Notes under the pieces: generated by a model
Told to the model about the DNA's origin: nothing
The model's input: only the letters and a program-made list of their open reading frames with translations
Databases searched by the model: none
Position numbers and translations under genes: made by a program
NCBI GenBank assembly: GCA_004000155.1
Contig: RCSS01000089.1
Coordinates: forward strand, 1 to 46,115
Length of the DNA stretch: 46,115 bases
Origin: Tubulinosema ratisbonensis
Taxonomy: Eukaryota > Microsporidia > Tubulinosematidae
Direction of reading: 5' to 3'
In this document: in pieces, positions 423 to 45,567 of the stretch
Numbering within the stretch: position 1 is the first letter of the stretch
Layout: each line of letters opens with the position of its first letter

Positions 423-630
423 TTTTTTTTGTTGCCTAGAGATGGGAAATCCATACGAAGATCTTTTCGCTATACCTTCTTTATAAGAATATTCATACCT
501 AGTTGACGGAGACATACGGTAAAATATGTTTCCCATACTTAGGTATAGCTCAAGATACTGCGAGCCTTTCACCCGCTAAAACCCACCCCGTGCACTCTAT
601 CGACTGCCTAAGTTTACCTTACCTTGCAGG
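423..630 (-). repeat. Dispersed A-tailed repeat, copy 1 (long form)
   Basis: The 3' A-tail of the element reads as a T-run at 423-430, followed by the conserved terminal block GTTGCCTAGAGATGGGAAAT. Homology to the copy at 29610-29775 continues to about 592 (CCCCGTG). Beyond that, 605-630 matches the outer part of the 21768-21972 copy (ACTTAGG and TGCAAGG segments on the element strand), so this copy keeps more of the 5' part than the 29.6-kb copy. No convincing target-site duplication is visible. The element is probably a SINE or the 3' end of a LINE; no coding capacity is seen. Confidence 0.8.
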
Positions 631-2428
631 CTTTGCTCAAGTTTATTTAAATTAATCTCAGAGCTTAAAGTGAAATATAAAGTCATTAAAGAACAAATAA
701 GTAAAACCTATAAAGAAAGTTTAATTAAAAAAATTCAGATTCACTTTAAAAGATAAATCTATTGATTTTAAAAATCTTCCCTGCTAACATAATCTGTGAT
801 TTGAAAATATACAAATTTAATCTTGTTGTGTGTCCAAAAAGGATTAGTCGAATTAAAGGAGACGATTAAGATCTATAATGGTAAATTGGGAAATAAAAGC
901 CATTAAGCAATTATTTCCTCTTTAAGGAAAAAAACTTAAATTTTAAAAAAATTATGGATTCTGGTAAAAATACCATTAAAAACAAAAACAAGCTAGATAA
1001 GCCAAGTAGCACATCCAACCTAATTTCTATCTCTTGGCCGAAACTCTCTCATTTAAGGATTTACTCAGAAAATTACAGATAACAAAGGAGATCTAAAAAA
1101 TTATACACTTAAGTCTTGACTGGCTTAAGGAATGCTATAAGAAAGTGACGAAGGTAATAAAAAGTCTTCTACTAGAAGTAATTTAATTTTTTAAGTTTTA
1201 GACCAAGACCTAAAAGTATATACTAAGGTTTTGGAATCAAAGATGTTTTAAAGAAATTTTTTGCAATAAGTTATTAAAAGTTCAAAGTATTTTTATAAGG
1301 TACCTTCAAGAAGATGTTTTTCATTTAAAGAAGTCTCACAGAGACGAATCAAAGAAGGTTTTTATTTTAAATGCGATTTTATGTTTAAATTTATGCTTAC
1401 AAGGCAGGTAAAAATCTTTAGAAAATTTTTTTTTGTAAATTCTAAAAAAAAGAAATTTCAGACAAGAAAAGTAAATTTTAGAAGAAATTCCCTATTATCG
1501 CTAAATTTTAAAAATAAATTTGTTTTTAGGTGTAAACGTGACAAAGTTGTTATAAAGTGATTACAAAAATACTACATTGTATATTGTAATATTAAAATAA
1601 ATTTTTATCAGTCTTTTTAAGTGTGATTTGTTATTAAAAGAAGAACACAAACAATATTATGATAAATACACTTAAAGCAGAATGAGATTTTCTGACCATC
1701 TAAAGCTTTTAAATATTTATTTACATGATATTACCACAAGTTTTTAAAAAATTGGTTATTTTAGAAGTGAAATTTATGATGATATCAAAAAAATTTGATT
1801 ATATTTTTGACTTTTGTTATATTTTAAATGGTTTATTAACCTTACACTCTTTGTTTATATTTTTATAGATAAATGTTTTTATTAATCTATCTCATTCTAA
1901 TTTTTTATACAAATATTCTTAAAGGAAAGATAATAGTATTTCCTAAGATTAATAAATATCATCATCACCTTTTCTGTTGGGATTGTAGCTATTGACACAT
2001 TAAATCCTATGTTTTTATCCGAATAAAGGTAAAAGGCTTACTTTTTAATTCGCAATTCAATTATCATCAATTTTCTCGTAAACGAGGTACGAATTATCGT
2101 TTTTTGATTTAAATTAATTATTTTAGTTTGTAATTGCAAGATGAATCATTAGTTTTGTAAAATGATTTCAATGCTGATAGTTTATTTAATCTTGGCTTTA
2201 TGAACTTATAAAGTCTTAAGCATTTAAACTTGTTTTAAAGGAGGTTTCTATTGGGCCGATTTATTATTTAAGATTAAAATTAAACCATCATTTTTTTAAA
2301 TAAATAAGAAATTAATGAGTTTGTGCTGCGTCTTAAATGGAGTTTAGATAGTTTTTTATTTGGCTCAAAACAAAATAAATTAATTAATATTAGTTTTATT
2401 TGTAATAATATTTAGAGAATATTGGTTT
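631..2428. other. Intergenic, possible degenerate coding sequence
   Basis: There is no intact gene. The plus-strand frame beginning at 1270 stays open for 96 codons, to a TGA at 1558, which is long for such AT-rich DNA, and its translation is rich in Lys and Arg. A region around 830-920 also reads like eroded coding sequence, with many stops. I cannot assign a family. These may be remnants of a transposon, but chance open frames are not excluded. Confidence 0.3.
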
Positions 2429-3291: not shown

Positions 3292-5899
3292 TTAAATATT
3301 TAATTATTTAAAAAANAATAAAATATATTTTTTAAGAAATTTTCTATCAAATTTAAAGCACAATAAAAAAACAAACCAATCAAATTTCTCTTAAATGTAA
3401 TATCATTTCACCTTGTTTATAAAAAACTTCATTATGTTCAAATCTGTTAAAAAATATTGAATACCTTTTTAAAACATAATTTATTAAATTAAATTATAAA
3501 TTTACATATTTTTATGATTTTAATTTAAAAACAATTACCTTTGCAAAAATTAAAATTTGACTTCATCTTGGATAGATAAGAGGAAAATTTATTTGGTTGC
3601 TTGAAATGAAAATTAAATTTATTTGGTTGCAATTAAATTAAAAATCGGAGGAAAGGTATTTTTCCAGATAAATATTACTTCTTTTATTCATGTTGAAAAA
3701 CGTATCAACAAGTAAAACAATTCTTAGATTAAATAAGTATTTTTTATACAAAATAAATCCATTTTTCCAAAAAGCAATCTTCAAAATTCGCATTCTTTAA
3801 TATATTACTTTAAATTTTATTATTATTGTTATTATAATCATTTCGTCTCAAAAATTTCTTGAGCTTGGACCAAAATAATTTGATTATTTGAGTGTGTAAT
3901 TTTGTAATTAAATCTACAAATGTTTGGAATGGTTAACAGAATCGTGGTTGTATGGGTATTATTTTTGAAATACTTTAAAAGGAAGTAAATTCATTGGAAT
4001 GAACAGTTGAATTACTAGCATAAAATTTTCAATATATTTTTATAAAATATTTTTGGTTTTTTTTCTGAAGTCTTTTTAATGCGCACTTCATTGTTAGGGT
4101 ATCAATAGCTCCAAAAAATATTTTTACTTTCTTTTTGTCTACCTATTATATTTTCTTTGACCAATGAATCTTATCTATTTGAACTAAAAGCGTTCTCCAC
4201 TAATTGAAAATAAATATATTTTTTATCTATTTATAAATTATTATTCTAGTTCCTTTGAAAAATCTAAATATTGTGGGTAATGAAAACTCAGTAAAACATT
4301 TTCTTTGTTTATACTAAGGTTTTGATGAAATAAACTAATAATTGAATTTGTTGCTGTAAAATCAACTTAATTTTCGTTTTTGAGAAAATAACTGGGTGAA
4401 CAACTTCTGTTTGACAAAAAAAAGCATATATATTTAATATTGATTTTTTTTACCTTTGCATCTAGTCTTCTTGAACATTCTGAACAACGTATATAAGGAT
4501 AGGCTTTATATATAATAATATGATTAATCAGTACTCCTGCATTTCAATTTGTATCTTAAAAATTTTACAAAAACTTATTTTACCTGTTGATATATAAAAA
4601 GGGGGGAGTCTTTTGTGTGGGTAATATTTTCTCGCCAGGTTTTATTTTAATTGCGAACATTTAATCAATCATTATTTATTGCTAATGTAAATGCAATATA
4701 CTATCTTTTATTTAAAAAATGTAAATTATTTATAAATTTATATTTCTTTACTGTAAAAAAAGTAAAAAAATCTTTTTATTAAAAATAGAAGTGTAATTAG
4801 TTAATAATCTAAAAAAAAAACTTAATACATCTTAGTTGTAAAAATAACAAAAATTACTTTCTTATGTATATTATAAAATTCTTTTTTTGAATTAAAATAG
4901 AATTTTTAACTATCTAAAAAGTAAAAATATATCTGTTATTTACAATTATTTTGTTAGAAAAAATTGAGAATGAATAAAAAAGGATATTTAAGATACACTC
5001 TATCCATTTATTATTTATTTGATTAGATGTATTATCCAAATTTATTAATCTTATAGTTAGATATGACTTCAAAAACAGATGATGACAATCCGAAACAAGT
5101 TTTAAGAAATCAGCGGATGATTGATCTTAATAGGCTCAGAAAAACTATTTAAGAAAAAAATTTTAAATAAATATAATATCTGAGAAAATTTATCTATATT
5201 TTTGTAAAAAATCACCAGCTCCCAAGAGGAATAGCATATCCAACCCTTATTACAAACCTTACCTTTTATTGTATTTAACCTTCTAGAAAAATATCTTAAA
5301 ACCAATTTCTAACAAAAATGGCTTTTTTTGATATGAAATTCATTTTACAAAGTTATTACCTTTTGAATTTTGAATTATTCTTTATTATATTCAAAATTAT
5401 TCATTATTTTGTGATATATTTGATTTAAGAAATTATATTTACAATGTAATTTAATAAAATCTATAGAATTAATATATTAAAAATCCATTTGCAAAATTTT
5501 TTAATTAAATGAATCTATATTTAGTTAACGATTTGTCTAAATTATTTTAAATGTTTTAGTACCAACCAAAAATCGAATATCATCATCTTTAAATTTTTTA
5601 TTTCTTCTTTTAAAGCAGCTCTTAAAGGATTATTAATTAAGTGTCTAGCAAGTATAGATCTGATGAAACTAAAAAATTCCATAATTAATTTTATTATGGG
5701 ATTTTGGATAAATGACCTTTAATATTATATTATTGTTATTGGAGCCTATAAAACATTTTTTTGATGGTAAAACTTATGATAGTTTATGATTAATATATCA
5801 CAATAATATCTTATAAAGTAACTTGACAATTTGTTTAGATAGATTTAATAAAGTAATCTCCATTTAAAGAGCTTTCTTTTATTTTAAAACAAATACCTC
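3292..5899. other. Gene-free AT-rich stretch
   Basis: I see no supportable gene in these 2.6 kb. A direct repeat AAATTTATTTGGTTGC occurs twice near 3587-3630. A short frame at 5063-5152 encodes 29 residues rich in Asp, Asn and Arg that look coding-like, but it is too short to call. The opposing 67-aa frame at 5102-5305 has no recognisable features. One N lies at 3316. Confidence 0.4.
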
Positions 5900-6562
5900 T
5901 CCTCCGTTTTACTGGGTGCTAGCATACAGCTAATATTTGTTTCTTTGTTGGTTCTCACTAATCTTAACGCTTTTGAATATATCGGTCAATAACCATAATT
6001 CCTTAAGTGATGTGGATTCGAGGCATTCTCGTCAAAAAATACAAGACTTTATCATTTTTATAGCCCAATGATGAGTATAAATTTGTTTCGTTACATTTTT
6101 TTTTGTTACCTAGAGATGGGAAATCCATACGAAGATCTTTTTGTTATACCTTCTCGTTTCAACTTTAATTAAAGATTCCTTTCAATTGAAATACTAACGA
6201 ACCTTTTACAGAAAAATGCATATTTTTAGTGTTCTTGCTGCTGTACTCTGACTTTTATTTATATCTTCCTCGTTGAGGCGTCTACTAACTCTTGCTCGGT
6301 ATAATACAAATCTCCTAATATTAGTTGAGATGTCTTAACTTTTACCTTAAAACAAATGTTTTTCATGTTTTCTATTATTTTATAGGCCACTTGCCTTGTG
6401 ATGTCTACGTATTCCGATATCTCTTTGTCAATAGGTTTCTATAAAAACCTTTTCTTACTCTTTTTCTTAGTACGAATTAAATTTATTGCCTTTTTTACGT
6501 TTTTTGCGATTAAATCATCGTTAAAGACATTATCTTTTTTTTTTGTGAGGGTTGTCAAACAT
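5900..6562 (-). pseudogene. Broken helix-turn-helix coding sequence, transposase-like
   Basis: On the minus strand an ATG at 6562-6560 opens a frame that breaks in a ten-T homopolymer (6535-6544), where a one-base shift is needed. It then reads to a stop at 6259-6261 with one internal TAG (6439-6441). The encoded segment includes IDKEISEYVDITRQVAYKII, which has the spacing of a helix-turn-helix like those at the N-termini of Tc1/mariner and related transposases. A copy of the dispersed repeat (6096-6154) interrupts the region. Beyond it, about 6075-5955 again reads as coding-like on the minus strand with scattered stops. No DDE catalytic block was identified, so the transposase assignment is inference. 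Confidence 0.45.
6096..6154 (-). repeat. Dispersed A-tailed repeat, copy 2 (5'-truncated)
   Basis: This copy keeps only the terminal block: a T-run at 6096-6104, then GTTACCTAGAGATGGGAAAT and CCATACGAAGATC, ending near 6154. It lacks the rest of the element found in the long copies. It lies within the broken coding sequence on the same strand. The flanks GTTTCGTTAC and CGTTTCAAC may be a decayed target duplication, but this is weak. Confidence 0.75.
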
Positions 6563-7318
6563 GTTAAGGAAAGAAAATAAATTTTTAATATTATTTGTTT
6601 GATAAACAAATTATTGTAAAAATGAAAAACTTTGAATTTAATTTTGAATAACTGTAAATATAATAATGAATAACCTTGTAAATATAGTTTAGTTTATAAT
6701 TTTAATAAGAAATATTACTCAGCAAAATATAATATTTTAATAAAACAAATCACATTCTAAGAAATACTGCTTTCAAATATGTAAAAAGAAAAATAAATTA
6801 ATTATTTAAATTAAAAGAATATTTGTAAAATATAAATTAAACAAATAATTTATGTATAATTTTATATAAAAAACATAAAATGTTTGTAATATTATTATAA
6901 AGTGTTTTTAAAAAATTCTTAATGTCATTTTACTAATTAAAATATAAATTATAATTATAAAAATAATAAATCAATCAAATTTTAATGAAAAGAGAATATG
7001 AATCAATTATTCTAAAAATAGAAATTGGTCAAAAATTTATTAATTTTATATATTTTAACCAATTAACTATTTAATAACAAAAGAAAAATTTTTTGATTAA
7101 TTATCTAAAAAATGGAATATTGAATTTTACGTAAAATTCAATTTAAAAGTTATTTTTCGAATAAAAAAGTAAAAAAACTAATATTTTAATAGAATTTAAC
7201 AATTGAAATATTAAAACTAATAAATTCAAAACTTCATAATAAAAAATAAAAAAATTAATAATTCAAATTAGTCATCACTTTGTTTCCAAAAATAATTACG
7301 CAGATCAAAAAACAAAAG
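6563..7318. other. Very AT-rich spacer upstream of secreted protein gene
   Basis: There are no genes. The sequence is almost entirely A and T. A short palindrome ATTTGTTT-gat-AAACAAAT lies near 6595-6615. The stretch leads into the TATA-like box of the next gene. Confidence 0.5.
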
Positions 7319-7344: not shown

Positions 7345-8709
7345 ATGCATTTGATAAAAATACTACTAGCAGTAATCTTTTTTGTAGCAGTAACAATTAC
7401 CGGAGCAAAGATATCAGAAAGACGTCGAAATGTCTCTCTAGAATCGACTAACACTGAGAATTTGATAGTACCTCGGATTTTAATGTCTTACAAGCAAGAA
7501 AACAATTCTGACAATTCACTTTTTGACAGTTTAAATGAACATGAAAATTTAACAGAGACAGAAATAACAAACTTAAAAAATGAATTTCAACAAAGGATAA
7601 CTGAACGTGCTTCACATACAGAGAGTGATGATTTAAGTTTACAACCTAATGAAAATGGTTCATTTCTGATGTTAGGCGAGAAATTAGATGATTTCTACAA
7701 AGTTGTGAAAAGAGAAGTAGAAAATGCTGTGGAAGAGGTAAGCAATTTACCTTTGGATGAATCTTTTATTAATAGTTTTGCGATTACTGATTTAGAATTT
7801 AAAGGCTCCCCAGAATTTTACAAACATTCTCTCGCCAATCGTACAGACGAAGTTAGAAGATTAAAAAGAGATTTGACCAACGAAGACGAAGCAGAAAAAG
7901 ATACCCAAGAAAAAACTGATAACGATTTAGTAAGTGAAATTGGTTCACCAGTGACCTATAATTTTGAGTTATTTGTTGTAAAAACACAAGTTGATTTCAT
8001 AAGATCACAATACGCGAACAACCAAACAGAGTCCCAGAAATATTATTTAGACAAAATGCAAAAAGAAGAAGCAGAATATTACGAAGCAATCTATAAGTTT
8101 ATCAAATCAAACTTTAGAATGGCATCAAACGAAATAAAAATGTTAACTAATTATTACGAAAAAAACGAAGTTTACTTTTTTGAAGAAGAAATTACCTCAG
8201 AAGATGAAAAAGAATTAATTAACCAAGAAATTATTGCAAAGTTTGATTCACTTGAGAAAAGTTATAAAGAATACACTGACAGCATAAAAGATCTGTTTAA
8301 CTGTTGCGTTGATTTAGCTAATAAACTTCTTCCTATGCAAAAATTGATCTCTGGTTTTTATGATGTAATACCGGAAAATAAAAATGTCCAAAATTGGATT
8401 GGTGACACAGTTCATAAATCTTATGACAGTAAGAAGAAACTGATTAGTTTGGTGAGGTACGTTGTGAAAAAGGTGAATAATCAGTACAAAGTGTCTAGGA
8501 GAACAAAGACTAACTGTGCAGTTAAATATTCTGATAAGATTATTTCTGAAAAGGCGCATGATGAATGTAAAAATAAAACTGATTCTATGATGAAGATGAG
8601 GGAAGAGATAAGGAGAATTGGGAATGAAGTTAGGAAGAAGATTGCTGAATCTGTTAATGAGGAAAGGAAGTATTTAAAGAGTGAAGGATGGCAGATCAAA
8701 GATAATTAA
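7345..8709 (+). CDS. Secreted helical protein, lineage-specific
   Basis: This 454-aa protein begins with a clear signal peptide (hydrophobic core about residues 4-20, likely cleavage near Gly20-Ala21), so it is probably exported, to the spore coat, the parasite surface or the host. The mature part is highly charged and mostly helical, with heptad-like stretches around 215-310 and 410-445. It contains only four cysteines (C320, C321, C391, C408), all in the C-terminal third, which could form disulfides. RRLKRD at 171-176 is a candidate KEX2/furin-type processing site and would separate an acidic N-terminal part from the helical C-terminal part. I recognise no known family. It is flanked by long gene-free stretches. 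The start is the only ATG consistent with the signal peptide. Confidence 0.8.
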   Translation: MHLIKILLAVIFFVAVTITGAKISERRRNVSLESTNTENLIVPRILMSYKQENNSDNSLFDSLNEHENLTETEITNLKNEFQQRITERASHTESDDLSLQPNENGSFLMLGEKLDDFYKVVKREVENAVEEVSNLPLDESFINSFAITDLEFKGSPEFYKHSLANRTDEVRRLKRDLTNEDEAEKDTQEKTDNDLVSEIGSPVTYNFELFVVKTQVDFIRSQYANNQTESQKYYLDKMQKEEAEYYEAIYKFIKSNFRMASNEIKMLTNYYEKNEVYFFEEEITSEDEKELINQEIIAKFDSLEKSYKEYTDSIKDLFNCCVDLANKLLPMQKLISGFYDVIPENKNVQNWIGDTVHKSYDSKKKLISLVRYVVKKVNNQYKVSRRTKTNCAVKYSDKIISEKAHDECKNKTDSMMKMREEIRRIGNEVRKKIAESVNEERKYLKSEGWQIKDN

Positions 8710-11230: not shown

Positions 11231-11404
11231 AATATTATCAAAATGTGAAAGGCTGCAGTATCTTGAACTATATATAACTATGGGAAACATATTTTACCGT
11301 ATGTTTCCGTCGACTAGGTATAAATATTCTTGTAAAGAAGGTATAGCGAAAAGTTCTCTGTGTGGATTTCCCATCCCTAGACAACAAAAAAATATTATCA
11401 AAAT
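11231..11404 (+). repeat. Dispersed A-tailed repeat, copy 3, with 14-bp target duplication
   Basis: The element occupies about 11245-11390 and ends in GACAAC plus an A-run. It is flanked by perfect 14-bp direct repeats AATATTATCAAAAT at 11231-11244 and 11391-11404. Its 5' end starts at GTGAAAGGCTGCAGTATC, inside the longer form, so it is 5'-truncated. It carries the internal hairpin arms GGAAACATA and TATGTTTCC and the 3' block GTGTGGATTTCCCATCCCTAG. It lies about 75 bp upstream of the first paralog gene, where it could influence the promoter. An A-tail, a 14-bp duplication and 5' truncation are the marks of target-primed reverse transcription. Confidence 0.9.
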
Positions 11405-11477: not shown

Positions 11478-13004
11478 ATGTTCAAGTTGATTATAAACAT
11501 TTTAAAATGTTATTGTTCATTAAAAAGGAAACTTGACAATCAAACTGAGGTAATAGAAAATAAAAGGTCTTTATTTGATAATCCAGAAGATGTTGAAGCA
11601 GCAAACATATTAATTAGTTTGGCTATGAGTAACAAAGAGATATGTAAGCCAGATGTATCTCATAGCGAGGTTATCGTTTCTAGTAGTTCTAATCCCAATA
11701 ATATTAACAATATTGGATCAAAAGATACTATAAGAGAAATTGTTATCCAAATTAATTCAGATATTTCACAGACTAAAAAACACACGACAATTAGAAGTAT
11801 CAAAAGCAGAATGATCACAAATATCTTGACAACTAACAAAAATACTTTAGGTGTAAATCCTTCAAAAAGAATCTCCGTTTTATATAATTTTCATATTTGG
11901 CAAAATTTGGATTTTGTAGAGCTAAAAATTGCTTTTCAGATAATTCCTTACTTCAACTTAAACTATTTTTATATCTTCTTTCAAACCAATTCCTTAAGAC
12001 TTACCGATAGTTGTTTGACCCAGAATCTTTGCATTTCTCAAGAAAAAATTGTTCATTTTGTAAGTGATAAGATTTTTAATCCCAAAATTAACTATTTATG
12101 TATCGAAGAAATAAAACAAGAACCTTTTAATTTTGATACCTTTTGTGTATCAAATAATAAAAATTATTTGAGTTTACAAATCGAGATGAGAAAAAAATTT
12201 TATATTTTAAGCAACAAATTTTCAAAAATAGAAACATTTCTGACAATTTTTGTACCTAAAGAAATTAAAAAAAGAAACTTGCCATCTAAAAACAACTATA
12301 TTTTTGAAATGATAAAGGTTCAACTTGACGAATTTCGTAAATTTAAAAATAATCCAATACTTAAATATTTATTTCCAGAAATGGATTTTATATTCAACTT
12401 AGTTGTAAGTTGTAAAAAGGTTTATTTTGGCAAAAGAGTTTTTTATAGTATCATGATAATTCATCTCAAATACTGTTTTTTTAAAAGGATTATTGGGAAA
12501 GAGATTAGAGAAGCTTTTCTCTGTAATGATAGATTGGATCTGTGTAAATGCATTTATTTATCATATTTCATAATAAGCTCTAAGTTCCTTTTACAAACTA
12601 TTATTATTAAAGTGATGTCTAATGATTTTAAAAATTCAGTGAAATATTTTTTAAGCAATTACTTATTATTCTTAGCCGTTAACGATAAGAAAAAATGGTT
12701 GAATTTTAATTCATTCTTTCTTCTAAATGTGTTTGAACTGACAGATTTAGAAATCTTGTGTTCTTTTAAAATTAATATTTTAGATGATGAATCAATATCT
12801 TATCCTAACCAGAACATAGAAATGATTTTTAAAGGTTCTTTACAAAGCCTACAATCTGCTTTTAATTCAAAAACCAATCTTAAAATTTCTATTAAAAGAT
12901 TGTTAGGAGAAGAATTTAAAACGGATAATTTTACATTAGAAAAATTAGAAGATTTTTTTGACCAAAAGACAAAAGAATTATTTTTAAAACAGTTTCCGTT
13001 ATAA
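11478..13004 (+). CDS. Paralog family member A, unknown function
   Basis: This 508-aa protein belongs with the genes at 13880 and 20083 to a family I cannot match to any known one. The N-terminus has a short hydrophobic run (about residues 2-13), then KRK at 16-18, IENKR at 26-30 and an Asp-Val-Glu-Ala-Ala helix-like motif at 38-42. After a variable Ser/Asn-rich linker, conserved blocks follow: YNFHIWQNLDF (136-146), YFNLNYFY (158-165), a LKYLFPEMDFI block (295-305) and IIHLKYCFFKRIIGKEI (327-343). The C-terminus contains FKGSLQSL and LLGEEF. Against member B the conserved blocks stay in the same residue register, so the fold tolerates substitution more than insertion. The hydrophobic N-terminus may be a signal peptide and KRK a nuclear signal; both are inference. 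No CCC motif precedes this ATG. Confidence 0.8.
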   Translation: MFKLIINILKCYCSLKRKLDNQTEVIENKRSLFDNPEDVEAANILISLAMSNKEICKPDVSHSEVIVSSSSNPNNINNIGSKDTIREIVIQINSDISQTKKHTTIRSIKSRMITNILTTNKNTLGVNPSKRISVLYNFHIWQNLDFVELKIAFQIIPYFNLNYFYIFFQTNSLRLTDSCLTQNLCISQEKIVHFVSDKIFNPKINYLCIEEIKQEPFNFDTFCVSNNKNYLSLQIEMRKKFYILSNKFSKIETFLTIFVPKEIKKRNLPSKNNYIFEMIKVQLDEFRKFKNNPILKYLFPEMDFIFNLVVSCKKVYFGKRVFYSIMIIHLKYCFFKRIIGKEIREAFLCNDRLDLCKCIYLSYFIISSKFLLQTIIIKVMSNDFKNSVKYFLSNYLLFLAVNDKKKWLNFNSFFLLNVFELTDLEILCSFKINILDDESISYPNQNIEMIFKGSLQSLQSAFNSKTNLKISIKRLLGEEFKTDNFTLEKLEDFFDQKTKELFLKQFPL

Positions 13005-13876
13005 ATTTTTCGATTTTATAAGATTTTTTTATGGGATTTATTTATAATTTGATTTCTAATGTTAAATATAGTATTCTACATAAAGTTGGAATTTTTGATC
13101 AGGGCTAAAATAATCATAAAATAAAACAGATTTTAAAAATAAGGTATTATGTTTAAACACAAATAAAAATTAAAATACTTTATTTTATGACCACGAGTCG
13201 TTATAATTCAACCTTTAAAAATAAAATTTTTAATATGATTATCATTTCGTTTATTAAAAATGTCTTATAGTAATAACATTTTTTTGCTATTTTGTTTTAA
13301 TTAAATTTTAAATATTTTTCCTTTTTAATACGTAATAATGCTCTAATCTATAATGATTTAATGGCAAGTAAATTCTCAAAACAGGCTTTATTTTGTTGCG
13401 TTATATTCATAAATCAGATTATTTTTAAACTGATGTTAGAACAGCTTGGGCCGGTTATTTATTGTAATTTTAAACTTAAAATCTTATTTTGCAAGACGTA
13501 ATATTTTAATGCCAATCAATATTTCGAATTTTTAGAAAAATTAGCTTAAAATATTTAAGTTTTGAATTTTTTTTCGCATTGCTTTTTTACAAAATGACTC
13601 TAAAATACGTTTAAAAAACTTAGCAACAAACAATTTGAATATTATTAATTTACTTGTAAATAAATCAAAAAGCAACAAATTGTTTAGAATAAAACTTAAT
13701 GAAATATAAACATTATTTAGTAAAAAAAAACTTGATTATAATTCTTTTTAAATTAAGTTTTTTAATTTCTATAACAAATTTAATCGTCAAATTTATTTAT
13801 TCATTTGATAGCAAATATTTTTATCAAAAAATAATTTATTTAAAAAATAAAAAATTTTATCGGGTTTAAAGATTAA
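13005..13876. other. Spacer between paralogs A and B
   Basis: There is no gene. The segment at 13110-13127 (ATAATCATAAAATAAAAC) matches 15451-15468 downstream of member B at 17 of 18 positions, which suggests that the duplicated unit included 3' flanking DNA. Confidence 0.5.
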
Positions 13877-13879
13877 CCC
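13877..13879 (+). promoter_or_regulatory. CCC motif abutting a start codon
   Basis: AACCC directly precedes the ATG at 13880. This matches the microsporidian CCC-type start signal and fixes the start of member B. Confidence 0.6.
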
Positions 13880-15403
13880 ATGAATTATTTTACATTGTAT
13901 ATACAGCTATATTGTAGTTCAATAAAAAGAAAAGGCAATGATTTTGCAGAGAAAATAGAAAACAAGAGGAAATATATACATGATTTTAGAGATATTGAAG
14001 CGGCAAAAACAATGATGATTTTAGCGGCAAGTCAAAATAAACCCTCATGTACAACAAAGACACTGGAAATACAAGATAAAGGTTTTAATGACAACAATGT
14101 AGAAAGACCTAAAGTTTTCTATGTAACATCAACTAATCGAACAAATAACCTCGAAGAAATTTCATCTATAGTTAATCCGGTTGAATTGATAATTTTACCT
14201 GACTCCTCTCAAAATTATGTCGCAGAAAATACAAACCAAACAATGAGTTATAAAGTCCAACACCAGGCCACAACTCCAGTGATATATAATTTTCATATCT
14301 GGGAAAATTTAGATTTTAACGAATTAGAAAAAAATTTTCAATCTAAATCATATTTTAATCTAAATTACTTTTATACATATTTTTACAAAATACAATTGCA
14401 AATTACAGAAAAATGTTTAGAAGAAAAACTTTATTTAAACATAGAACAAATTCATCAATTAATAAATGATAAAATATATAATCCAAATGTAGAATATTTC
14501 AATATTGAAAAGTTAGATTTGAATTTTACTAACTTTGAAACATTGATTTCTAAAACCGAGAAGAATTATAATTCTTTACAAATTGAAATAATGAAAGTAT
14601 TTATCGATTTGTTCGGACATGGGAGTAAAATTCGTCGTTTTTTGTTTGTTTATGTCTCACCTGATCTAAAATCAAAGTCTGTCTCCCAGAAAGATCAATA
14701 TCTAGTTAAAGCTTTAAAAGAAACATTTGAAAATTATTTCAAGTTTGAAAAAAATCCTGCATTAAAAATTTTTTTTCCTGAATTTGAAATTATAATGGAA
14801 TCTTTTTATGATAAAAGTGGGGTTTATTTTCCTAAAAGATTATTTTATTGTGTAATGGTAATTCATTTAAAATATTGCTTTTTCAAAAAGATTATTGGCA
14901 ATGAAATTAAAGATGAATTATCCAAAAACAAGACAATTAATTTACTAAATTGCAAATATCTAACGTATTTTTTATTGAGTTCTAAGTTCATGATACAAAC
15001 ATTGTTTTTAAATAATTTCATTATTCATGCCTATATCAGAAAATACATTTTTGGCAATTACTTACTCTTTTTAAAAACAAATGATAAAAACAATCTGCTT
15101 AACTTTGACAGTTTTTATATTTTAAATATTTTCCAAATAAATTTTTCAAATTTTAAATATTATTGTAATCTCATGTCTTTAAAAACTGAATTTGAAAATA
15201 TTCCTAAGAAAACTATGAGCATTACCATAAATGGATCTTTAGATGAATTGAATCAATTTTTTGATGAAGAAAACAATATAAGAATTTTGTTAGAAAGAAT
15301 ATTAGGCAATGAATTTACTCATAGTTCAGATTTAACCTTAGGACAATTGAGGGAAATTTTCAATGATAGTTTAAATAAACTACTATTGAAAGAATTTACA
15401 TAA
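13880..15403 (+). CDS. Paralog family member B, unknown function
   Basis: This 507-aa protein is a tandem paralog of the gene 0.9 kb upstream. It shares the same order of blocks: a hydrophobic N-terminus (about residues 3-13), IKRK at 15-18, IENKR at 26-30, DIEAAKTMMILAAS at 38-51, YNFHIWENLDFNELE (136-150), YFNLNYFY (158-165), KFEKNPALKIFFPEFEII (288-305) and a FPKRLFY-to-HLKYCFFKKIIGNEI block (317-343). HLKYCFFK is identical in all three members. The C-terminus repeats the INGSLDEL and ILGNEF pattern of member A. Many hydrophobic and aromatic residues in the second half suggest a compact helical core rather than membrane spans. No catalytic motif is recognisable. Members A and B are close in sequence and adjacent, which fits a local duplication. 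Confidence 0.82.
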   Translation: MNYFTLYIQLYCSSIKRKGNDFAEKIENKRKYIHDFRDIEAAKTMMILAASQNKPSCTTKTLEIQDKGFNDNNVERPKVFYVTSTNRTNNLEEISSIVNPVELIILPDSSQNYVAENTNQTMSYKVQHQATTPVIYNFHIWENLDFNELEKNFQSKSYFNLNYFYTYFYKIQLQITEKCLEEKLYLNIEQIHQLINDKIYNPNVEYFNIEKLDLNFTNFETLISKTEKNYNSLQIEIMKVFIDLFGHGSKIRRFLFVYVSPDLKSKSVSQKDQYLVKALKETFENYFKFEKNPALKIFFPEFEIIMESFYDKSGVYFPKRLFYCVMVIHLKYCFFKKIIGNEIKDELSKNKTINLLNCKYLTYFLLSSKFMIQTLFLNNFIIHAYIRKYIFGNYLLFLKTNDKNNLLNFDSFYILNIFQINFSNFKYYCNLMSLKTEFENIPKKTMSITINGSLDELNQFFDEENNIRILLERILGNEFTHSSDLTLGQLREIFNDSLNKLLLKEFT

Positions 15404-16071
15404 ATAAAAATATTTGAGCTGACTTTTTAACAAATTTTTAAAATGCATTTATAATCATAAAATGAAACTTAGACTTTTAGGGATATTAAAATACACATAA
15501 AATGATGTTTTTAAGCATAAGGGAAGAATCAAAATTTTTAACATAGAATCACTTTATAACAAATTTCTGTTAAATAATACAAAAAATCTTTAATCAGCTG
15601 AATGAAAAGCATAAAGATGGTTTTTGAACATAAAATTAGTCTTTTTACAAACGTATTACATGAAGGATGTGAAAGAGTTGTGGTAAAAAATGTAAATTTA
15701 ACGTTGCCTGTTATTTTTTTGGAACTTTCTTTAACAGAAAAATAAGCTAGTAGAGGAGGTCATAACAATTAAATATGTTTATTTTGGGCTGGTTTTAATT
15801 AATAACGATAGTGTAAAAAGGGGGTTGTAGGAATAATGACGCTTTTTCTTGTAAATTAAAAACAATCTTTTTTCTTTTAAATTTTTTAAGCTAGTTTTGC
15901 TCCATAAAAATTTAATATTGAATTATTAAAGAAACCTTTTTACTCATATAAAAGATTATATGTTTAATTTCTTTAATAATAAACTAACATTCTTTATTGT
16001 CGTTGCATAAGCAGAAATTGTATCGTTAGAATATTTAAAAAATAATTTTAAAGTAATAAATGAACTTATAC
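15404..16071. other. Spacer with nested inverted repeat
   Basis: There is no gene. Arms 15922-15934 (ATTATTAAAGAAA) and 15968-15980 (TTTCTTTAATAAT) are perfect reverse complements. Between them lies a second small hairpin, CATATAA-aaga-TTATATG. The whole could be a structured transcript or the remnant of a palindromic mobile element. Confidence 0.5.
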
Positions 16072-16142
16072 ATGATCATGTGATATAGATCTTCGTATGG
16101 ATTTCTTATCCCTAGGCAACAAAAAAAATGACCATGTGATAT
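16072..16142 (+). repeat. Dispersed A-tailed repeat, copy 4: minimal insertion with 15-bp target duplication
   Basis: Only about 41 bp of the element is present (16087-16127): AGATCTTCGTATGGATTTCT, then TATCCCTAGGCAAC and an A-run. It is flanked by 15-bp direct repeats, ATGATCATGTGATAT (16072-16086) and ATGACCATGTGATAT (16128-16142), with one mismatch. This is a severely 5'-truncated retroposed copy and defines the minimal 3' end shared by all copies. Confidence 0.88.
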
Positions 16143-16559
16143 TTCACTAGAAGCACACAGGATCGCTGCTATATTAAAAATAAGATGTAAAATAAATTCA
16201 TTAAATGGTTCTGTTTTTGGGAATGTAACTAGAATTACAACCAGGCAAGGAGATGAAGCAATGATTTAATTTTTAAAATATAAATCACTAGTATTTCGAT
16301 ACAATGTTTAAAGACAAAGAGATAATTTGAATAAACGTCAAAAATAACCCCTATACTCTTCGAACTTTAAATTTAACCCAAAAAAATTTTAAAACAAATG
16401 CAAATAATTTTAAATAGAATATTCTCATTCATGGATTAACTTAATTTAGCCAGAAAATAATCAAATTTTATACTCAAAAGACCCTAAAAACCCTCAACCC
16501 GACACTTTAATACAAGATAGTAAAGTTTTTGTAGTGTTTTTGACGGAAAGCTTTTTTTT

Positions 16560-17280
16560 AAAAAAGAACATATATGCAGTATATGTAACAAAGTTTTTAA
16601 ATTACTAAACCATATTCCATCTATAGATAAAATGCCATGAGAGGTTTGAAATCATCTTGATACTGATATAATATCAAGCATTTGCGAAAAAATTGTTTTT
16701 TGTGGTTTTAATGTTATACTGACCGTATTTAAAGAATAATAATAAAGTATTCACCAAGGCAGCATATTTTCACTATAAAATTGCACTCTGATACTTTGTA
16801 CAACTATATAAACGTTTTAAAGGGGTTAAAAACAAAATACCCATAGTTCACTTTAGTCATTCTAAATCAGTAGATTTAAAAAAGTGCAAAAAGAAGAGAT
16901 TATTCTAAATTATAAGGTCAAAGGTAAAAGAAGCTGTTTTATGATTCAGAACAGATTTCTTATTATTGTAAAAATCTAAAATAACATTAAAAGAGCATTA
17001 ACCATTACTATTGCAAATTAAAAAAGGAATATAATATCAATTATTTGCAATCAAGTAGCCATAATCATCAATATTTGGACAGATGAACATAAGTTATATG
17101 TCAATTTAGATGATTATAACTAATATTACATATCTGTCTGCCATAGATATTATTTCTTAACAAGAGAAATGGAATCAAACACAGTCAATTAAATCATTCT
17201 ATAAAAAACTTTAGTCAGAAATTATGCACATAAAAAGAACCTTTATCGAAAAGAGACAACATTTTAACAATGAATTTCGT
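16560..17280 (+). pseudogene. hAT-like transposase fossil
   Basis: No intact frame exists, but one phase shows two telling segments. At about 16575-16610 it reads CSICNKVFK, a Cys-x2-Cys start like a BED zinc finger, followed by HLDTD after two stops. At about 17064-17180 it reads IINIWTDEHKLYVNLDDYN, a stop, then YYISVCHRYYFLTREME. This resembles the hAT transposase block (D/N-x-W-T-D ... Y-x-x-I-x-x-H-Y). Several stops and probable frameshifts show it is dead. The assignment rests on motif resemblance only; the region between the two segments is too eroded to read. Confidence 0.4.
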
Positions 17281-17967
17281 AATTATTCTAATAACAGAGC
17301 AGATTGTTTAAATGCAATTATCAATATTATTAAAATTGAATTTTAAATTGTATTATTGAAATTCTATTGTCAATCCTCAATAAAATATACATTATAAACT
17401 AATTGTGATTCTGGATACAATTAAACATTATTTTTTTTTGCTGTGTTGATTAATTTATTTTAATTTTGCTTTTTTTAATTAATTTATTTAGTTTACCAAC
17501 CTTTAAATTATATTTAAAACTTAGCGATAAATTTTAATATTTTAAAAGATTTTTACAAAAAAAATGTATAATAAAATTTTCTTCTTGTTCTTTAGCATAT
17601 TACTTTAGTATTTTAGACGGCGTAATATCTGTTAGGCTTAACTTGTTCATAAATTCAAAAATCTAAACAACACAGACTAGAAAATCAATTTTCTTATTTT
17701 AAAAATTTTTATTGAAAAAAATTAATTGCCATTTTCTACTTCATTAAACATAAAACACTTTTTTCTGTAATTTACTTTCACTTTCTTTGTACCATTTTTT
17801 CTAACAACTTAACTTTTAGCAGTTCTTTTTTCTTATTTCTAAATTAAAAAATTTATTAATTTATTGTTTAAAAGGGTAAATTCGTAGTAAAAACTTAAAT
17901 ATTTTCTTATTTTCTTAAATTAAATTCTACTTAAAAAATATTTAATTGAAAAAAATTTTTAAAAACA
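17281..17967. other. Gene-free AT-rich spacer
   Basis: I see no gene or clear signal. Low-complexity AT sequence leads into the ATG at 17968. Confidence 0.4.
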
Positions 17968-18597
17968 ATGTTCCCTCTTTTTTTAACATTTTTAGTTTTT
18001 GCATGGCAATCAGAAATAGAAGAAAAAAATATTTGTTCGTCAGACAAAACAAACAATCAATTAAATGATCCTCAACAAAAAACTTATACTTACAGATGTT
18101 TTGCAAAATATAAACATAATGATACAAACCAAGAAAATTTGGTTTTTGCTTTTACTTTGAATAAATTTAACGATGAAGAAAACCAAATCTGTGACCACTT
18201 TACAAGATTTCAAAAGGAATTATTTGACTTTACAGTTATTAAATTTATTAACAATGTACAAAACTTGACTAAGAATCTTACTTTTTCTAATAAAGAACTC
18301 AATGACGTTATTATTAAAAATCTAGAAATTACGAAATCTTTTATTGAAGTAGAAAATGATTATAGAACAAATGGTAAATATGATTTATTAGTTTGTTAAA
18401 ATGGATATATTATTTTTACGGTTAAAAAAAATAATGTTCTTGAGTTTTTGGTAGAAAATATTAGCAAAGGAAAAATTAATGAAATCGACATAAATACATA
18501 CATCGAAGAACTTTATCCAGAAAATGTTTATAAAAATGTTGAAAGTTTAGGAATTGAAGATGGTTCGTTTTTTCGTATAACTGCGTCAATAAATTAA
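17968..18597 (+). pseudogene. Secreted protein gene split by an in-frame TAA
   Basis: The ATG at 17968 opens 143 codons to a TAA at 18397-18399. The same frame then stays open for 65 more codons, to a TAA at 18595-18597, with composition matching the first part (it contains NNVLEFLVENISKGKINEID and ends DGSFFRITASIN). No shift is needed, so one stop codon separates the halves. The product would be 209 positions with a signal peptide (hydrophobic residues about 2-13), three upstream cysteines and N-x-T/S sites. The start of a second, shorter protein is not evident. It may be a young pseudogene, a base error or a readthrough stop. I recognise no family; the N-terminus implies secretion. Confidence 0.6.
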
Positions 18598-20075
18598 GTA
18601 AAAGGGTTGATTTAATTTTTTATTTTAAAGATGTTTATGATATGGCTTTTTTATAAATTGTGAGGTTTTAACATTTTCTAAAAAATTATTAAATTTATTC
18701 TTAGTTTATGAATAAACTAGAACATATTAAGGTTCAAAGTCTAATTTTTATTTATAATCAATAAACGATAATAAATTATTGCCAGAAACTAAAATTAATA
18801 AAACTTTCTTTTTTTAAAATAATGTAATTAGCAGGGCCATAAGCTTTCTACTTTAGCTTTTTTTAATAAAAGAAATTTAGATTTCTTGGTTAAATAAAAG
18901 AATTAACAAAGATTCATTTTAATTCTGACTTTTATGTGTAAACCTTACAGAATCATATCTATTATGTTAATATCATTGAAAATTTATAAAATTAACTTAT
19001 TATTTAACAAAAACACAAAGTTTAATAAATACAATTTTTTGGCATTTTACAAAATCCTCTTTAGCCACAAAAAGTGTTATTTTATGTAAAAATAATTTGT
19101 AAGCTAATGACTTTTGTTATTTTTTTAGATTTTTGTGTTAATTGCTGTCTGTTTCTTTGTTTGAATAATTTATAGTCTTTTCGATACGTCTTATTTTATT
19201 CAAGCTTCGTACCTTTATACCTGCTGTAATGTATCTATGTATTAGGGAGTATTGCGTAAGGGCACTTATAATTAGATTTTTAATTTATTTATCTTTATCA
19301 TATTTTTAGAAAAATCACCATTTTAAAGAATGCGCAATTTATGCTTCTAAAAAAAAGGCTATCATTTTTCGGAATTCTTCTTTATCCTAATAGCTTGAAA
19401 TGAAAACCTGACTATTTTTGCAAAGCCTGTCCCTCATGACATCACACAGCAATCTTGCATTACAAAAAGAGATATACAGAATAGAAAATAAAATAAAAAC
19501 ATCTTTTTTTGTGTATTAAAACAACTTTGTTTAAAATAATGAGCTTGTTTAAGAATCAGGGAATTTAGAAGATTTTTGCATTTCTATATGAAAAATGTGA
19601 AATTCGGTCACAATTTTATATATTTCTTTAATAATTTGTATACTTAATGTTTGCATATCAAAATATATTAAAATTTGTTATAAAAATAAAATCTAAATAT
19701 AGAATTGAGCATCAAATTTTTTTTTCTAAACAATATGATAAACACAAATTGTACTTAAGTTTATACTTTTTTAATGCCTAAATATATCATTAAATATGCT
19801 ACCAAACTTATAAATACATGTTACGTGTAGGTCAAAGCATATTTTTTACGAAAAGATCATCAATGTTTTCTACCAAAAAATAATTGTTTAATAAGTAATT
19901 TTTTATTTTTTTGGATTCGATTTCTCTATTTCTTCAGTCTTTTATCATTTTTAAGGATAAAATATCTATTCTTATAAAATTATATTTCAGTTTTATACAC
20001 ATTAATATTCTTAAGAAAATATCTTTCTTATACAAAATCATCTATTATCTTGTTTTATCATGTATCAAAATTTAA
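18598..20075. other. Gene-free stretch with faint minus-strand coding traces
   Basis: There is no intact gene. On the minus strand, 19515-19390 is open for 42 codons with unusually GC-rich, coding-like content (it includes LLCDVMRDRLCKNSQVF). The frame then continues past a TAG to a stop at 19339. Further minus-strand segments down to about 19100 read similarly in shifting frames. They may be an eroded gene; the family is not recognised and chance is possible. Confidence 0.3.
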
Positions 20076-20078
20076 CCC
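20076..20078 (+). promoter_or_regulatory. CCC motif upstream of a start codon
   Basis: AACCC lies 4 bp before the ATG at 20083. The open frame extends further upstream through a TTG, but this motif supports 20083 as the true start. Confidence 0.55.
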
Positions 20079-20082
20079 TAAA

Positions 20083-21639
20083 ATGTTATATTTTTTTAAA
20101 CTGTTTTACTTTACAAGCAAAAGAAAAAGATATGATACTGAAGCTGATTTTAGTTCAGAAACCCTACAATTACATAATAGCAGAGAAGTTGAAACCGCAC
20201 AAACACTTTTATGTTTAAGTAAACAACAAAGTCAAAATAAAAACACAGATATTATAAGACCCGAAATACTTTTATCTGATAGTAATTTAAAATTTTTTGA
20301 AGAACTAAGAAGGTCATATGTTAATAATAAAAATAAGAATTATGTTATAAAATATAAAAGATTCAAATCTAATAAAGAGTATAACATATTCCTACTTGAA
20401 TATAATCTTTTGAATGAAAGATCAACTAAAAGATGGATCATTAAAAAGAAATTGAATGAAATAATTAAAAAAAGAAATCTTTATAGAAAACAAATAAGAG
20501 AATCTAATAACAACAAATCTAACATATTTGATTTTCATAAATGGAAGAATTTGAATTTTGATAAAATAGAAGCTAATTTCGAAAATAAGCCATATTTTTC
20601 TTTGAATTATCTTTTAAATTCAGTTTGCGATCCAGAAAGATACTTTAATCATGCTTTAATAGAACAAAAATTAGATTTTGAGCCATCAAAAATCACTAAT
20701 TTCTTGAAAGATAGAATTTATGATTTTGAATATGATTACTTTTTACGGGAAGAATATAAAAAATATTCAAAAACATTTATAAATCCTTTAAATTGTGTAA
20801 AAGAAAACTATATATTTCTACAAAATAAACTAAAAAAATCTTATATTAATTCTAATAAAGATACAAAAATTTTGTTAAAATATTTATATCCCTATTATTC
20901 TTCTAATCAATATAATTATATGACATACAGAATTTATATGTCTGAGTTTATAAAATTTTGTTTAGAAGACTATTTAAAATTTGAAAAATTTCCATTTTTA
21001 AAATTTTTATTCCCAGAATTCGACATAATTTTAAAATTTTTAAAAACTCCTAGAAAGCTAAATTTCTTAAAAAGAACATTTTACTTTTTTACAATCTTTC
21101 ATCTAAAATATTGTTTTTTTAAAGATATGATTGTGTATGAAATAGAAAACGAAATTAATAAATTCAATAAAATTAATATTATGAACTGTGAATGTCTTCT
21201 GTATTTAATACTAAGCACAAAGGTGTCTCTTCAGTTCTTGTTTTTAAATTGTTATTTTTATGATGCAACTATTCTACATAATTATATTTTTAGTACTTAC
21301 ACGCTATTTATTCAATTGAATAATCCAAATACACAATATAATTTTGACTTGTATTTCATATTAAATTTTCAACATTTTCATAAAAAAACAGCTTCTTTTT
21401 TTTATGATACAATCACTCCAAATCAGGTAACTTCAGTTATTTGCCGAAATACCATAGTAATAAAACAATATATCAGTGAAGAACAAATAAATAATATATT
21501 TAATCCGATAACAAATTATAAAAATCTGATTAAAAAATTAGATGATAACATCAACTTGGATACCATTACAAATCAATCAGAATTAGAAAAGCTATTTCAA
21601 ACAAAGCTGGTATCTGCATTTTATAAAGAATTCTATTGA
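20083..21639 (+). CDS. Paralog family member C, unknown function
   Basis: This 518-aa protein is a more distant paralog of the genes at 11478 and 13880, about 4.7 kb beyond member B. The ATG at 20083 is preferred to the upstream in-frame TTG at 20050 because a CCC motif sits just before it and because the protein then aligns with its paralogs: a short hydrophobic N-terminus (about 2-11), SKRKR (12-16), EVETAQTLLCLS (35-46), FHKWKNLNF (151-159) and YFSLNY. The second half keeps KFEKFPFLKFLFPEFDIIL and IFHLKYCFFKDMI. An extra Lys/Arg/Asn-rich region occupies about 70-145 in place of the Ser/Asn linkers of A and B. The biochemical function is unknown. Confidence 0.8.
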   Translation: MLYFFKLFYFTSKRKRYDTEADFSSETLQLHNSREVETAQTLLCLSKQQSQNKNTDIIRPEILLSDSNLKFFEELRRSYVNNKNKNYVIKYKRFKSNKEYNIFLLEYNLLNERSTKRWIIKKKLNEIIKKRNLYRKQIRESNNNKSNIFDFHKWKNLNFDKIEANFENKPYFSLNYLLNSVCDPERYFNHALIEQKLDFEPSKITNFLKDRIYDFEYDYFLREEYKKYSKTFINPLNCVKENYIFLQNKLKKSYINSNKDTKILLKYLYPYYSSNQYNYMTYRIYMSEFIKFCLEDYLKFEKFPFLKFLFPEFDIILKFLKTPRKLNFLKRTFYFFTIFHLKYCFFKDMIVYEIENEINKFNKINIMNCECLLYLILSTKVSLQFLFLNCYFYDATILHNYIFSTYTLFIQLNNPNTQYNFDLYFILNFQHFHKKTASFFYDTITPNQVTSVICRNTIVIKQYISEEQINNIFNPITNYKNLIKKLDDNINLDTITNQSELEKLFQTKLVSAFYKEFY

Positions 21640-21767
21640 TAATAATGCAATCGATAGCGAAACTATATTTTTAAAGTATTTAAATTAAAATTATAATAAA
21701 TTTTATTCGATTATATTTTAAATCAAACTAATGTTAAAGATTTTAGCATAAATTATTTAATAACCAA

Positions 21768-21972
21768 TGCTTGCAAGTCAAGGTAGACTTAGGTAACCAA
21801 AATAATGCACGAGGTGAGGTTTGGCGGTTAAAAGGCTCGCAGTATTTTGATCTATACCTAATTATGTCAAAACAAATTTTACCGTATGTTTCTTTTAACT
21901 AGATAGTATACTTTATATAAAAGATAAAACGGAAAAATCTTCGCACGTATTTTCCTAGCCAACAAAAAAAAA
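21768..21972 (+). repeat. Dispersed A-tailed repeat, copy 5 (long, diverged)
   Basis: This is a diverged long copy, running from TGCTTGCAAGTCAAGG through GGCTCGCAGTATTTTG and TTTTACCGTATGTTTC to TTTTCCTAGCCAACA and the A-run. With copy 1 it defines the outer 5' part of the element. The internal hairpin arms are partly decayed, which suggests an older insertion. No clear target duplication is seen. It lies about 130 bp downstream of paralog C. Confidence 0.75.
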
Positions 21973-29595: not shown

Positions 29596-29789
29596 CATTA
29601 TTGATATTTTTTTTGTTGCCTAAGGATAGGAAATCCATACGAAGATCTTTTTGCTATACCTTCTTTATAAGAATATTTATACCTAGACGATGGAAACATA
29701 CGGTAAAATATGTTTCCCATACTTAGGTATAGCTCAAGATACTGCGAGCCTTTCCCCGCTAAAACCCACCCCGTGCATTATTGATATTT
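29596..29789 (-). repeat. Dispersed A-tailed repeat, copy 6, with 14-bp target duplication
   Basis: This is the best-preserved copy, about 29610-29775 (166 bp). Perfect 14-bp direct repeats CATTATTGATATTT flank it at 29596-29609 and 29776-29789. It reads from the T-run through GTTGCCTAAGGATAGGAAAT to AAAACCCACCCCGTG, and is about 95% identical by eye to the matching part of copy 1. The intact duplication and high similarity point to a recent insertion. It sits alone in the RPN1-RING spacer. Confidence 0.92.
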
Positions 29790-31240: not shown

Positions 31241-31320
31241 AAATAATATTGTAATTCAAAAGATCTTCGTATAAATTTTCCATCCTTAGGCAACGAAAAA
31301 AAATAATATTAGAATTAAAA
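31241..31320 (+). repeat. Dispersed A-tailed repeat, copy 7 (5'-truncated)
   Basis: The terminal block occupies about 31261-31300 (AGATCTTCGTATAAATTTTC, then CATCCTTAGGCAACG and an A-run). Flanking segments 31241-31260 and 31301-31320 agree at 17 of 20 positions (AAATAATATT shared), a decayed target duplication. It lies 80 bp downstream of the RING gene. Confidence 0.75.
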
Positions 31321-45382: not shown

Positions 45383-45430
45383 ACTTTTTTTGGTACCTGG
45401 GATGGAAAATCTATACGAAGATCTTTTCGA
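45383..45430 (-). repeat. Dispersed A-tailed repeat, copy 9 (5'-truncated)
   Basis: A T-run at 45385-45391 is followed by GGTACCTGGGATGGAAAATC and TATACGAAGATCTTTTCG, the terminal block of the element. Flanks AACTCTTACT and AATACTTACT may be a decayed target duplication. It is about 140 bp upstream of the Sld5 start. Confidence 0.7.
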
Positions 45431-45567
45431 AATACTTACTCAAGGTTAAAAAATATAAAATATTAGTGAAAATATAAAAATAATAATTAATAATTAATTA
45501 TCATTTTTTTAATTTAATTGGTTAAAAAATATTTTTAATAAATTAATAATTTAAATTGCATAAACTT

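What the first reader, a model, noticed from the sequence alone, without database searches (positions are those of the whole stretch)
11478..21639. Uncharacterised three-member paralog family in an accessory island
Three genes of 507-518 aa share an ordered set of blocks: an N-terminal KRK cluster, a helix-like Glu-Ala-Ala motif, FHxWxNLxF, YFxLNY, an LF/FFPE block and an invariant HLKYCFFK. I cannot assign the family. Members A and B keep nearly the same residue register over more than 400 positions despite many substitutions, indicating a constrained fold rather than decaying duplicates. Their clustering among transposon debris suggests a fast-evolving, possibly host-facing multigene family.
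Basis: partly seen in the sequence, partly recalled or inferred. Interest (0 to 1): 0.8.

Follow-up and report, generated by a model that had tools for sequence, protein, structure and literature searches.

The report
Parasite family of likely secreted proteins
A microsporidian parasite carries a small, strongly diverged family of related genes whose proteins probably leave the parasite to act inside its host's cells, possibly in the nucleus; the kind is familiar, but this family and the shape of its main domain matched nothing we could search.

Summary
In detail: three intact ORFs (508, 507, 518 aa) are real paralogs with the blocks described. It is incomplete: five own-genome searches return the same seven members on four contigs (20-37% identity), and the "invariant" HLKYCFFK holds only in the window's three. 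A second basic cluster makes 4 of 7 match a bipartite nuclear-localisation pattern (3 of 33 other ORFs do). A variable linker joins this to a conserved C-terminal domain, modelled confidently (pLDDT 79.7, pTM 0.79), without a convincing PDB or viral-model match. No credible Pfam, NCBIfam or PDB-sequence match, and no outside relative among the protein candidates scored. A-B dN/dS is about 0.38, dS near saturation. Best reading: a lineage-restricted family of secreted host-cell effectors, perhaps nucleus-directed; a known kind in microsporidia, though below the ten members used to define 'large gene families'. Secretion and nuclear targeting are inferred, not shown; three of seven N-termini are no more hydrophobic than some housekeeping proteins, and the KRK could instead mark a membrane anchor.

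The parts
11478..13004 (+). member A, intact single-exon ORF, 508 aa
   Evidence: homologous to B at 7.8e-87
13880..15403 (+). member B, intact ORF, 507 aa
   Evidence: query; CCC directly before ATG
20083..21639 (+). member C, intact ORF, 518 aa
11478..11522 (+). member A hydrophobic N-terminus (residues 1-15), candidate ER signal
11523..11531 (+). member A invariant KRK (residues 16-18); second basic pair KR at 29-30
13880..13924 (+). member B hydrophobic N-terminus (residues 1-15), candidate ER signal
13925..13933 (+). member B invariant KRK (residues 16-18); with KRK at 29-31 a bipartite NLS-like pattern
20083..20118 (+). member C hydrophobic N-terminus (residues 1-12), candidate ER signal
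20119..20127 (+). member C KRK (residues 13-15, followed by R); no second basic cluster
12261..13001 (+). member A conserved C-terminal domain (residues 262-508)
   Evidence: the corresponding domain of member D was modelled
14663..15400 (+). member B conserved C-terminal domain (residues 262-507)
20905..21636 (+). member C conserved C-terminal domain (residues 275-518)
13877..13879 (+). CCC immediately upstream of the member B start codon
20076..20078 (+). CCC upstream of the member C start codon

Best explanation
A lineage-restricted family of at least seven paralogous single-exon genes encoding proteins of 507-527 aa. Shown by sequence: seven intact ORFs; a hydrophobic N-terminus of 11-14 residues after Met, with one acidic residue in all seven together and little sequence identity; an invariant KRK directly after it; a variable linker; and a conserved, mostly helical C-terminal domain with a pair of strands that is modelled confidently. 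Inferred: the N-terminus sends the protein into the secretory pathway and is cleaved near the KRK; the mature protein is released into the host cell; the C-terminal domain binds a host target, and the variable linker and divergence reflect host-driven diversification. Least certain: the basic N-terminus (KRK, with a second cluster about 10 residues on in six members) acts as a nuclear-localisation signal, so that the proteins work in the host nucleus. My estimates: secreted and host-facing about 0.55-0.6; nucleus-directed about 0.28.
For: Seven members found by five separate queries, no others at E<=10. Segment before KRK: mean Kyte-Doolittle 1.31 against -0.33 in random windows of the same proteins (0 of 20000 as high), 1 D/E against 11.4 expected (5 of 20000 as low), pairwise identity 15%, while KRK is invariant and begins at residue 16 in 6 of 7. 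Second basic cluster stronger than at random positions (21 of 20000 as strong); bipartite pattern within the first 40 residues in 4 of 7 members against 3 of 33 other ORFs kept (ATG-started ORFs of 100 aa or more on the four contigs; frames open at a contig end and ORFs overlapping a longer one by over 30% were dropped). Beyond the N-terminus no clear transmembrane helix: one 19-residue window at 1.6 or more in A, none in the other six. A-B dN/dS about 0.38. C-terminal domain model pLDDT 79.7, pTM 0.79. No outside relative among the 7993 candidates scored in each of two searches of 5.8 billion proteins, a collection in which a histone deacetylase query finds many named microsporidia. Precedents seen as passages: clade-specific signal-peptide families are enriched among host-exposed proteins, and three of four nucleus-specific ones have signal peptides (PMC5423893); NbRBL28 with SP and NLS reaches the host nucleus (PMC9224602).
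Against: The N-termini are less hydrophobic than those of several other likely secreted proteins here: the best 9-residue value of B (1.18), C (1.37) and D (1.69) is no higher than that of ribosomal protein S2 (1.79) or RPN1 (1.77). No dedicated signal-peptide predictor was available. Basic residues after rather than before the hydrophobic stretch would favour a reversed membrane anchor over a cleaved signal (recalled rule, not tested). A, C and D do not meet the bipartite pattern in the first 40 residues, and C lacks the second cluster. One member of a different secreted-type family, window 7345-8709, has RRR at residues 26-28 not far after its hydrophobic stretch, so basic clusters near a signal are not unique to this family. 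No expression, proteomic or localisation data.
Confidence: 0.55

Rival explanations
1. The hydrophobic N-terminus followed by KRK is an uncleaved signal-anchor (N-terminus lumenal, body cytosolic) that holds the proteins on the parasite's ER, mitosome outer membrane or surface; they are structural or scaffold proteins of the parasite.
For: KRK sits immediately after the hydrophobic stretch, at a nearly fixed distance from Met, while residues before it carry no consistent positive charge; the positive-inside rule (recalled) would then place the body in the cytosol. By contrast the three relatives of window 7345-8709 on C95, C129 and C165 have a lysine early and no tribasic motif just after the stretch.
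Against: The stretch (11-14 residues) is short for a membrane span and contains K, R, N, Q, H or E in every member. That organelle components would form a lineage-restricted family of seven diverged paralogs seems unlikely (general knowledge, not tested).
Confidence: 0.2
2. Secreted, but KRK is a processing or export motif (for example a dibasic protease site) rather than a nuclear-localisation signal; the proteins act in host cytoplasm or in the spore or vacuole space. This overlaps the best explanation up to the secretion step.
For: KRK is invariant at an almost fixed distance from the N-terminus (residue 16 in 6 of 7, 13 in C), which a nuclear signal would not need; C has no second cluster. 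Window 7345-8709, of another secreted-type family, has RRR at residues 26-28.
Against: A second basic cluster in six of seven members (two or three K/R in five residues) is more than random positions give (21 of 20000). Three of the four members seen of the window 7345-8709 family and three small secreted-type ORFs of C38 have no tribasic cluster just after the hydrophobic stretch, so it is not a general export tag.
Confidence: 0.22
3. Parasite-internal proteins whose N-terminal hydrophobic residues are part of the fold; no secretion.
For: Hydrophobicity of B, C and D overlaps that of housekeeping ORFs.
Against: The segment keeps its hydrophobic character and lack of acidic residues at 15% identity, the pattern of a targeting segment, and is modelled with very low confidence in the full-length model.
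Confidence: 0.08

Closest known systems
Nematocida large gene families NemLGF1 and NemLGF5 (PMC5423893, PMC10393165; passages)
   Same: Clade-restricted paralogs with N-terminal signal peptides, enriched at chromosome ends, the families often adjacent to each other.
   Different: The four N. parisii families have 18 to 169 members; here seven. No relative was found among the scored protein candidates, and NemLGF sequences were not compared directly. No KRK after the signal was mentioned in the passages seen.
Nosema bombycis ricin-B-lectin-like family, NbRBL28 (PMC9224602; passages)
   Same: Microsporidian secretory multigene family; nine members combine SP and NLS, and NbRBL28 reaches the host nucleus.
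   Different: No ricin-B domain here: no Pfam match in any of the seven.
Encephalitozoon interAE, interB, interC and interD families (PMC4704409; passages)
   Same: Microsporidian multigene families; interAE, interB and interD are restricted to subtelomeres, and full interAE/interB precursors have an ER signal peptide.
   Different: They bear Pfam domains DUF1609, DUF3654, DUF1686 and DUF2463, none of which matched. Mature interAE/interB proteins have one transmembrane domain; none is clear here.

Membership tests
Microsporidian clade-specific secreted gene families (NemLGF type) | homologous paralogs within one genome | tested here: met
   seven members
[quoted passage not shown]
   seven found; the tool calls such counts lower bounds and the assembly is fragmented. 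So it is not filed as a 'large gene family' in that sense
Microsporidian clade-specific secreted gene families (NemLGF type) | N-terminal signal peptide or transmembrane domain by SignalP/TMHMM | not testable with these tools
   only hydropathy statistics were run
Microsporidian clade-specific secreted gene families (NemLGF type) | absent from other clades | tested here: inconclusive
   no outside hit, but only 7993 word-sharing candidates were scored and even member C of the window was not listed; the control used a highly conserved gene
InterAE/InterB (DUF1609, DUF3654), InterC (DUF1686), InterD (DUF2463) | match to the Pfam domain | tested here: not met
   0 of 7 members match any of these at E<=1; that these models are in this Pfam copy was assumed, not checked
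Ricin-B-lectin-like family | ricin B lectin domain | tested here: not met
   0 of 7 members; the genome itself has one match below the cut-off, on C188
Known structural fold of the C-terminal domain | significant structural match | tested here: inconclusive
Nucleus-targeted effectors | nuclear-localisation signal in the mature protein | tested here: inconclusive
   bipartite pattern in 4 of 7 within the first 40 residues; second cluster absent in C
Nucleus-targeted effectors | found in host nuclei | not testable with these tools
   no experimental data

The most novel reading that the evidence does not exclude
A previously undescribed microsporidian effector family with a new helical fold, whose members expose a basic KRK-led nuclear signal as their mature N-terminus once the signal peptide is removed, so that one junction couples export from the parasite with import into the host nucleus.
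Probability: 0.18. Interest if true: 0.7.

Novelty: new member of a known kind. Interest (0 to 1): 0.45.

Why it matters
[quoted passage not shown] This family offers seven paralogs, a sharply defined N-terminal motif that simple reporter fusions can test, and a compact domain modelled with confidence from seven sequences and without a convincing match among solved structures, hence a reasonable structural target.

Tried and rejected

Telomere link: no TTAGG x4 anywhere in the assembly, so contig ends could not be tied to telomeres. Members F (starts at 514 of C3) and G (lies at 274-1824 of C38) are by contig ends, but contigs average about 17 kb (4116903 bases in 236), so this is weak. Relation to the 213 bp repeat: rejected as family-specific. 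A general export tag: three relatives of window 7345-8709 and three small C38 ORFs lack it, but window 7345-8709 itself has RRR at 26-28, so this is not fully closed. PEXEL-like RxLxE after KRK: by eye it fits member E only; rejected.

dN/dS for pairs other than A-B and D-E is not meaningful: dS 1.2-1.8 with dN 0.75-1.0. The first full-length model was poor outside the C-terminus, so the domain was modelled alone.

Slips: alignment A2 and the queries lacked terminal residues of members D-G (first Met, last residue, or both); corrected in A3. Searches used A2. An earlier count said 34 other ORFs; the list has 33.
Full report
What was checked. The window is a whole contig (C37) of a 4.12 Mb, 236-contig assembly, with 18-30% G+C in 2 kb steps. 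The three ORFs are present at the stated coordinates and align as paralogs with the blocks listed. The contig's right half holds ordinary genes: SMC, RPN1, a RING protein, NAD(P)H-hydrate dehydratase, a PP2A B56 subunit, an AAA ATPase and a RhoGAP-like protein, and a histone deacetylase. Of the 7995 HDAC hits the best 120 were listed. At the top are unnamed proteins at 90 and 87%, a protein filed under the beetle Exocentrus adspersus at 95% over 93% of the query, and one under the bat Myotis brandtii at 63% over 68%; next come unnamed ones at 70-74%, Hamiltosporidium at 70% and Spraguea at 68%. This makes the genome microsporidian, and the beetle record probably carries sequence from a near relative.

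Family size. Own-genome searches with B, C, F, E and G each return the same seven places and no more at E<=10: A, B and C in the window; D (C48:3086-4663, +) and E (C48:5927-7507, -); F (C3:514-2097, +); G (C38:274-1824, -). All are uninterrupted ORFs of 507-527 aa with 20-37% pairwise identity. A+B and D+E are well-supported pairs (100/99 each), the rest unresolved. The tool calls such counts lower bounds. CCC lies within 18 nt of the ATG in 5 of 7 members and in 11 of 31 other kept ORFs of 140 aa or more on the four contigs, which agrees with the chosen start codons; A and F have none.

Anatomy. (1) The residues between Met and KRK are hydrophobic, with one acidic residue in all seven together against 11.4 expected (5 of 20000 draws as low); mean hydropathy exceeds all 20000 random draws; identity is 15%. 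Against this, the best 9-residue hydropathy of B, C and D (1.18, 1.37, 1.69) is below that of ribosomal protein S2 (1.79) and RPN1 (1.77), and other secreted-type ORFs here reach 2.1-3.6. (2) KRK is invariant, at residue 16 in six and 13 in C. (3) A second basic cluster follows in six of seven; a bipartite NLS pattern (two basic, 9-12 spacer, three basic of five) within the first 40 residues occurs in B, E, F and G (4 of 7) and in 3 of 33 other kept ORFs. (4) An EAA-like helix region, then a variable, gapped linker. (5) The FHxW and FxLxY blocks, of which W, F and L are invariant. (6) A C-terminal domain from about residue 262-277, with mean pairwise identity 0.26-0.41 per 25-column step over columns 351-500 and few gaps, including invariant FPE, I, K, E, C, Y, K, Q, F and N. 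Beyond the N-terminus no transmembrane helix is evident.

Constraint. For A-B, codon positions 1, 2 and 3 differ at 0.47, 0.34 and 0.55; dN 0.58, dS 1.52, ratio about 0.38; for D-E dN is 0.56 and dS 1.92. dS is near saturation, so the ratio is only a rough sign of purifying selection. With no orthologs at hand, positive selection could not be tested.

Relatives elsewhere. Two profile searches of 5.8 billion proteins returned only the window's own A and B. Limits: only the 7993 candidates sharing most words were scored in each, and member C of the window was not listed, so remote relatives could be missed. The control shows that named microsporidia are in the collection, but with a highly conserved gene. 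Pfam, NCBIfam, PHROGs and PDB sequences gave no credible match.

Interpretation. Microsporidia are known for clade-specific families with signal peptides or transmembrane domains: 59 of 68 such large families had no members outside their genus or species, two signal-peptide families of Nematocida are enriched at chromosome ends, and three of four nucleus-specific host-exposed proteins had signal peptides (PMC5423893, passages). NbRBL28 of N. bombycis carries SP and NLS and enters the host nucleus (PMC9224602, passages), and A. locustae hexokinase accumulates in host nuclei (PMC3976299, passages). The present family fits this kind, though seven members fall short of the ten that define 'large gene families' there. 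Its distinctive point is the invariant KRK at the junction of the hydrophobic segment with the body. Read as the mature N-terminus it could be a nuclear signal; read by the positive-inside rule (recalled) it could be the cytosolic flank of an anchor. In another secreted-type family the three members on C95, C129 and C165 have no such motif, but the member in the window (7345-8709) has RRR at residues 26-28. On re-checking I noticed this last point and lowered the novel case from 0.20 to 0.18 and raised the processing/export rival from 0.20 to 0.22.

Genome setting. On the four contigs no ATG-started ORF of 100 aa or more with a recognised domain lies between the family genes and the nearer contig end, which fits a chromosome-end position but does not prove it; no TTAGG x4 exists in the assembly. 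The repeat in the island is about 213 bp and dispersed: 42 matches listed from 40 scored of 290 candidate places, some between housekeeping genes.

Papers. Passages were seen by term search in PMC5423893, PMC10393165, PMC3976299, PMC9224602, PMC3749934, PMC4704409 and PMC12558613; all others were seen as search listings only, and one search found no paper. In those searches I saw no description of this family; supplements and most subscription journals were not seen.

Verdict. Real and constrained, with seven members rather than three; most likely a new, lineage-restricted secreted family of a kind already known in microsporidia, with an unmatched domain and a testable N-terminal motif.

Noticed in passing
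window 423-635, 6097-6154, 11245-11395, 16087-16128, 21765-21971, 29607-29777, 31258-31305, 45385-45435: A ~213 bp dispersed repeat, SINE-like in size; genome-wide 290 candidate places of which 40 were scored, 42 matches listed, all but two at 90% identity or more. No Rfam match in the window at gathering thresholds.
   Followed up: partly
window 7345-8709: A 454 aa protein with a strongly hydrophobic N-terminus and RRR at residues 26-28; one of a second diverged family of at least four (others on C95, C129, C165; 19-22% identity).
   Followed up: partly
window 17968-18399 and 18400-18597: Likely secreted small ORF (hydrophobic N-terminus) followed in the same frame, after a stop, by a further open stretch; possibly a broken gene or two genes. 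The pieces were not joined.
   Followed up: no
L037 (C38) 2060-2560, 4371-4877, 6221-6652: Three small tandem ORFs with short hydrophobic N-termini, the outer two weakly related to the middle one (35% and 24% identity).
   Followed up: partly
window 34800-36038: The histone deacetylase is 95% identical over 93% of its length to a protein filed under the beetle Exocentrus adspersus, which suggests microsporidian sequence in that beetle's genome record.
   Followed up: no
four contigs C3, C37, C38, C48: CCC within 18 nt upstream of the start codon in 16 of 38 kept ORFs of 140 aa or more, resembling the start-proximal CCC motif recalled for microsporidia; no shuffled control was run.
   Followed up: partly
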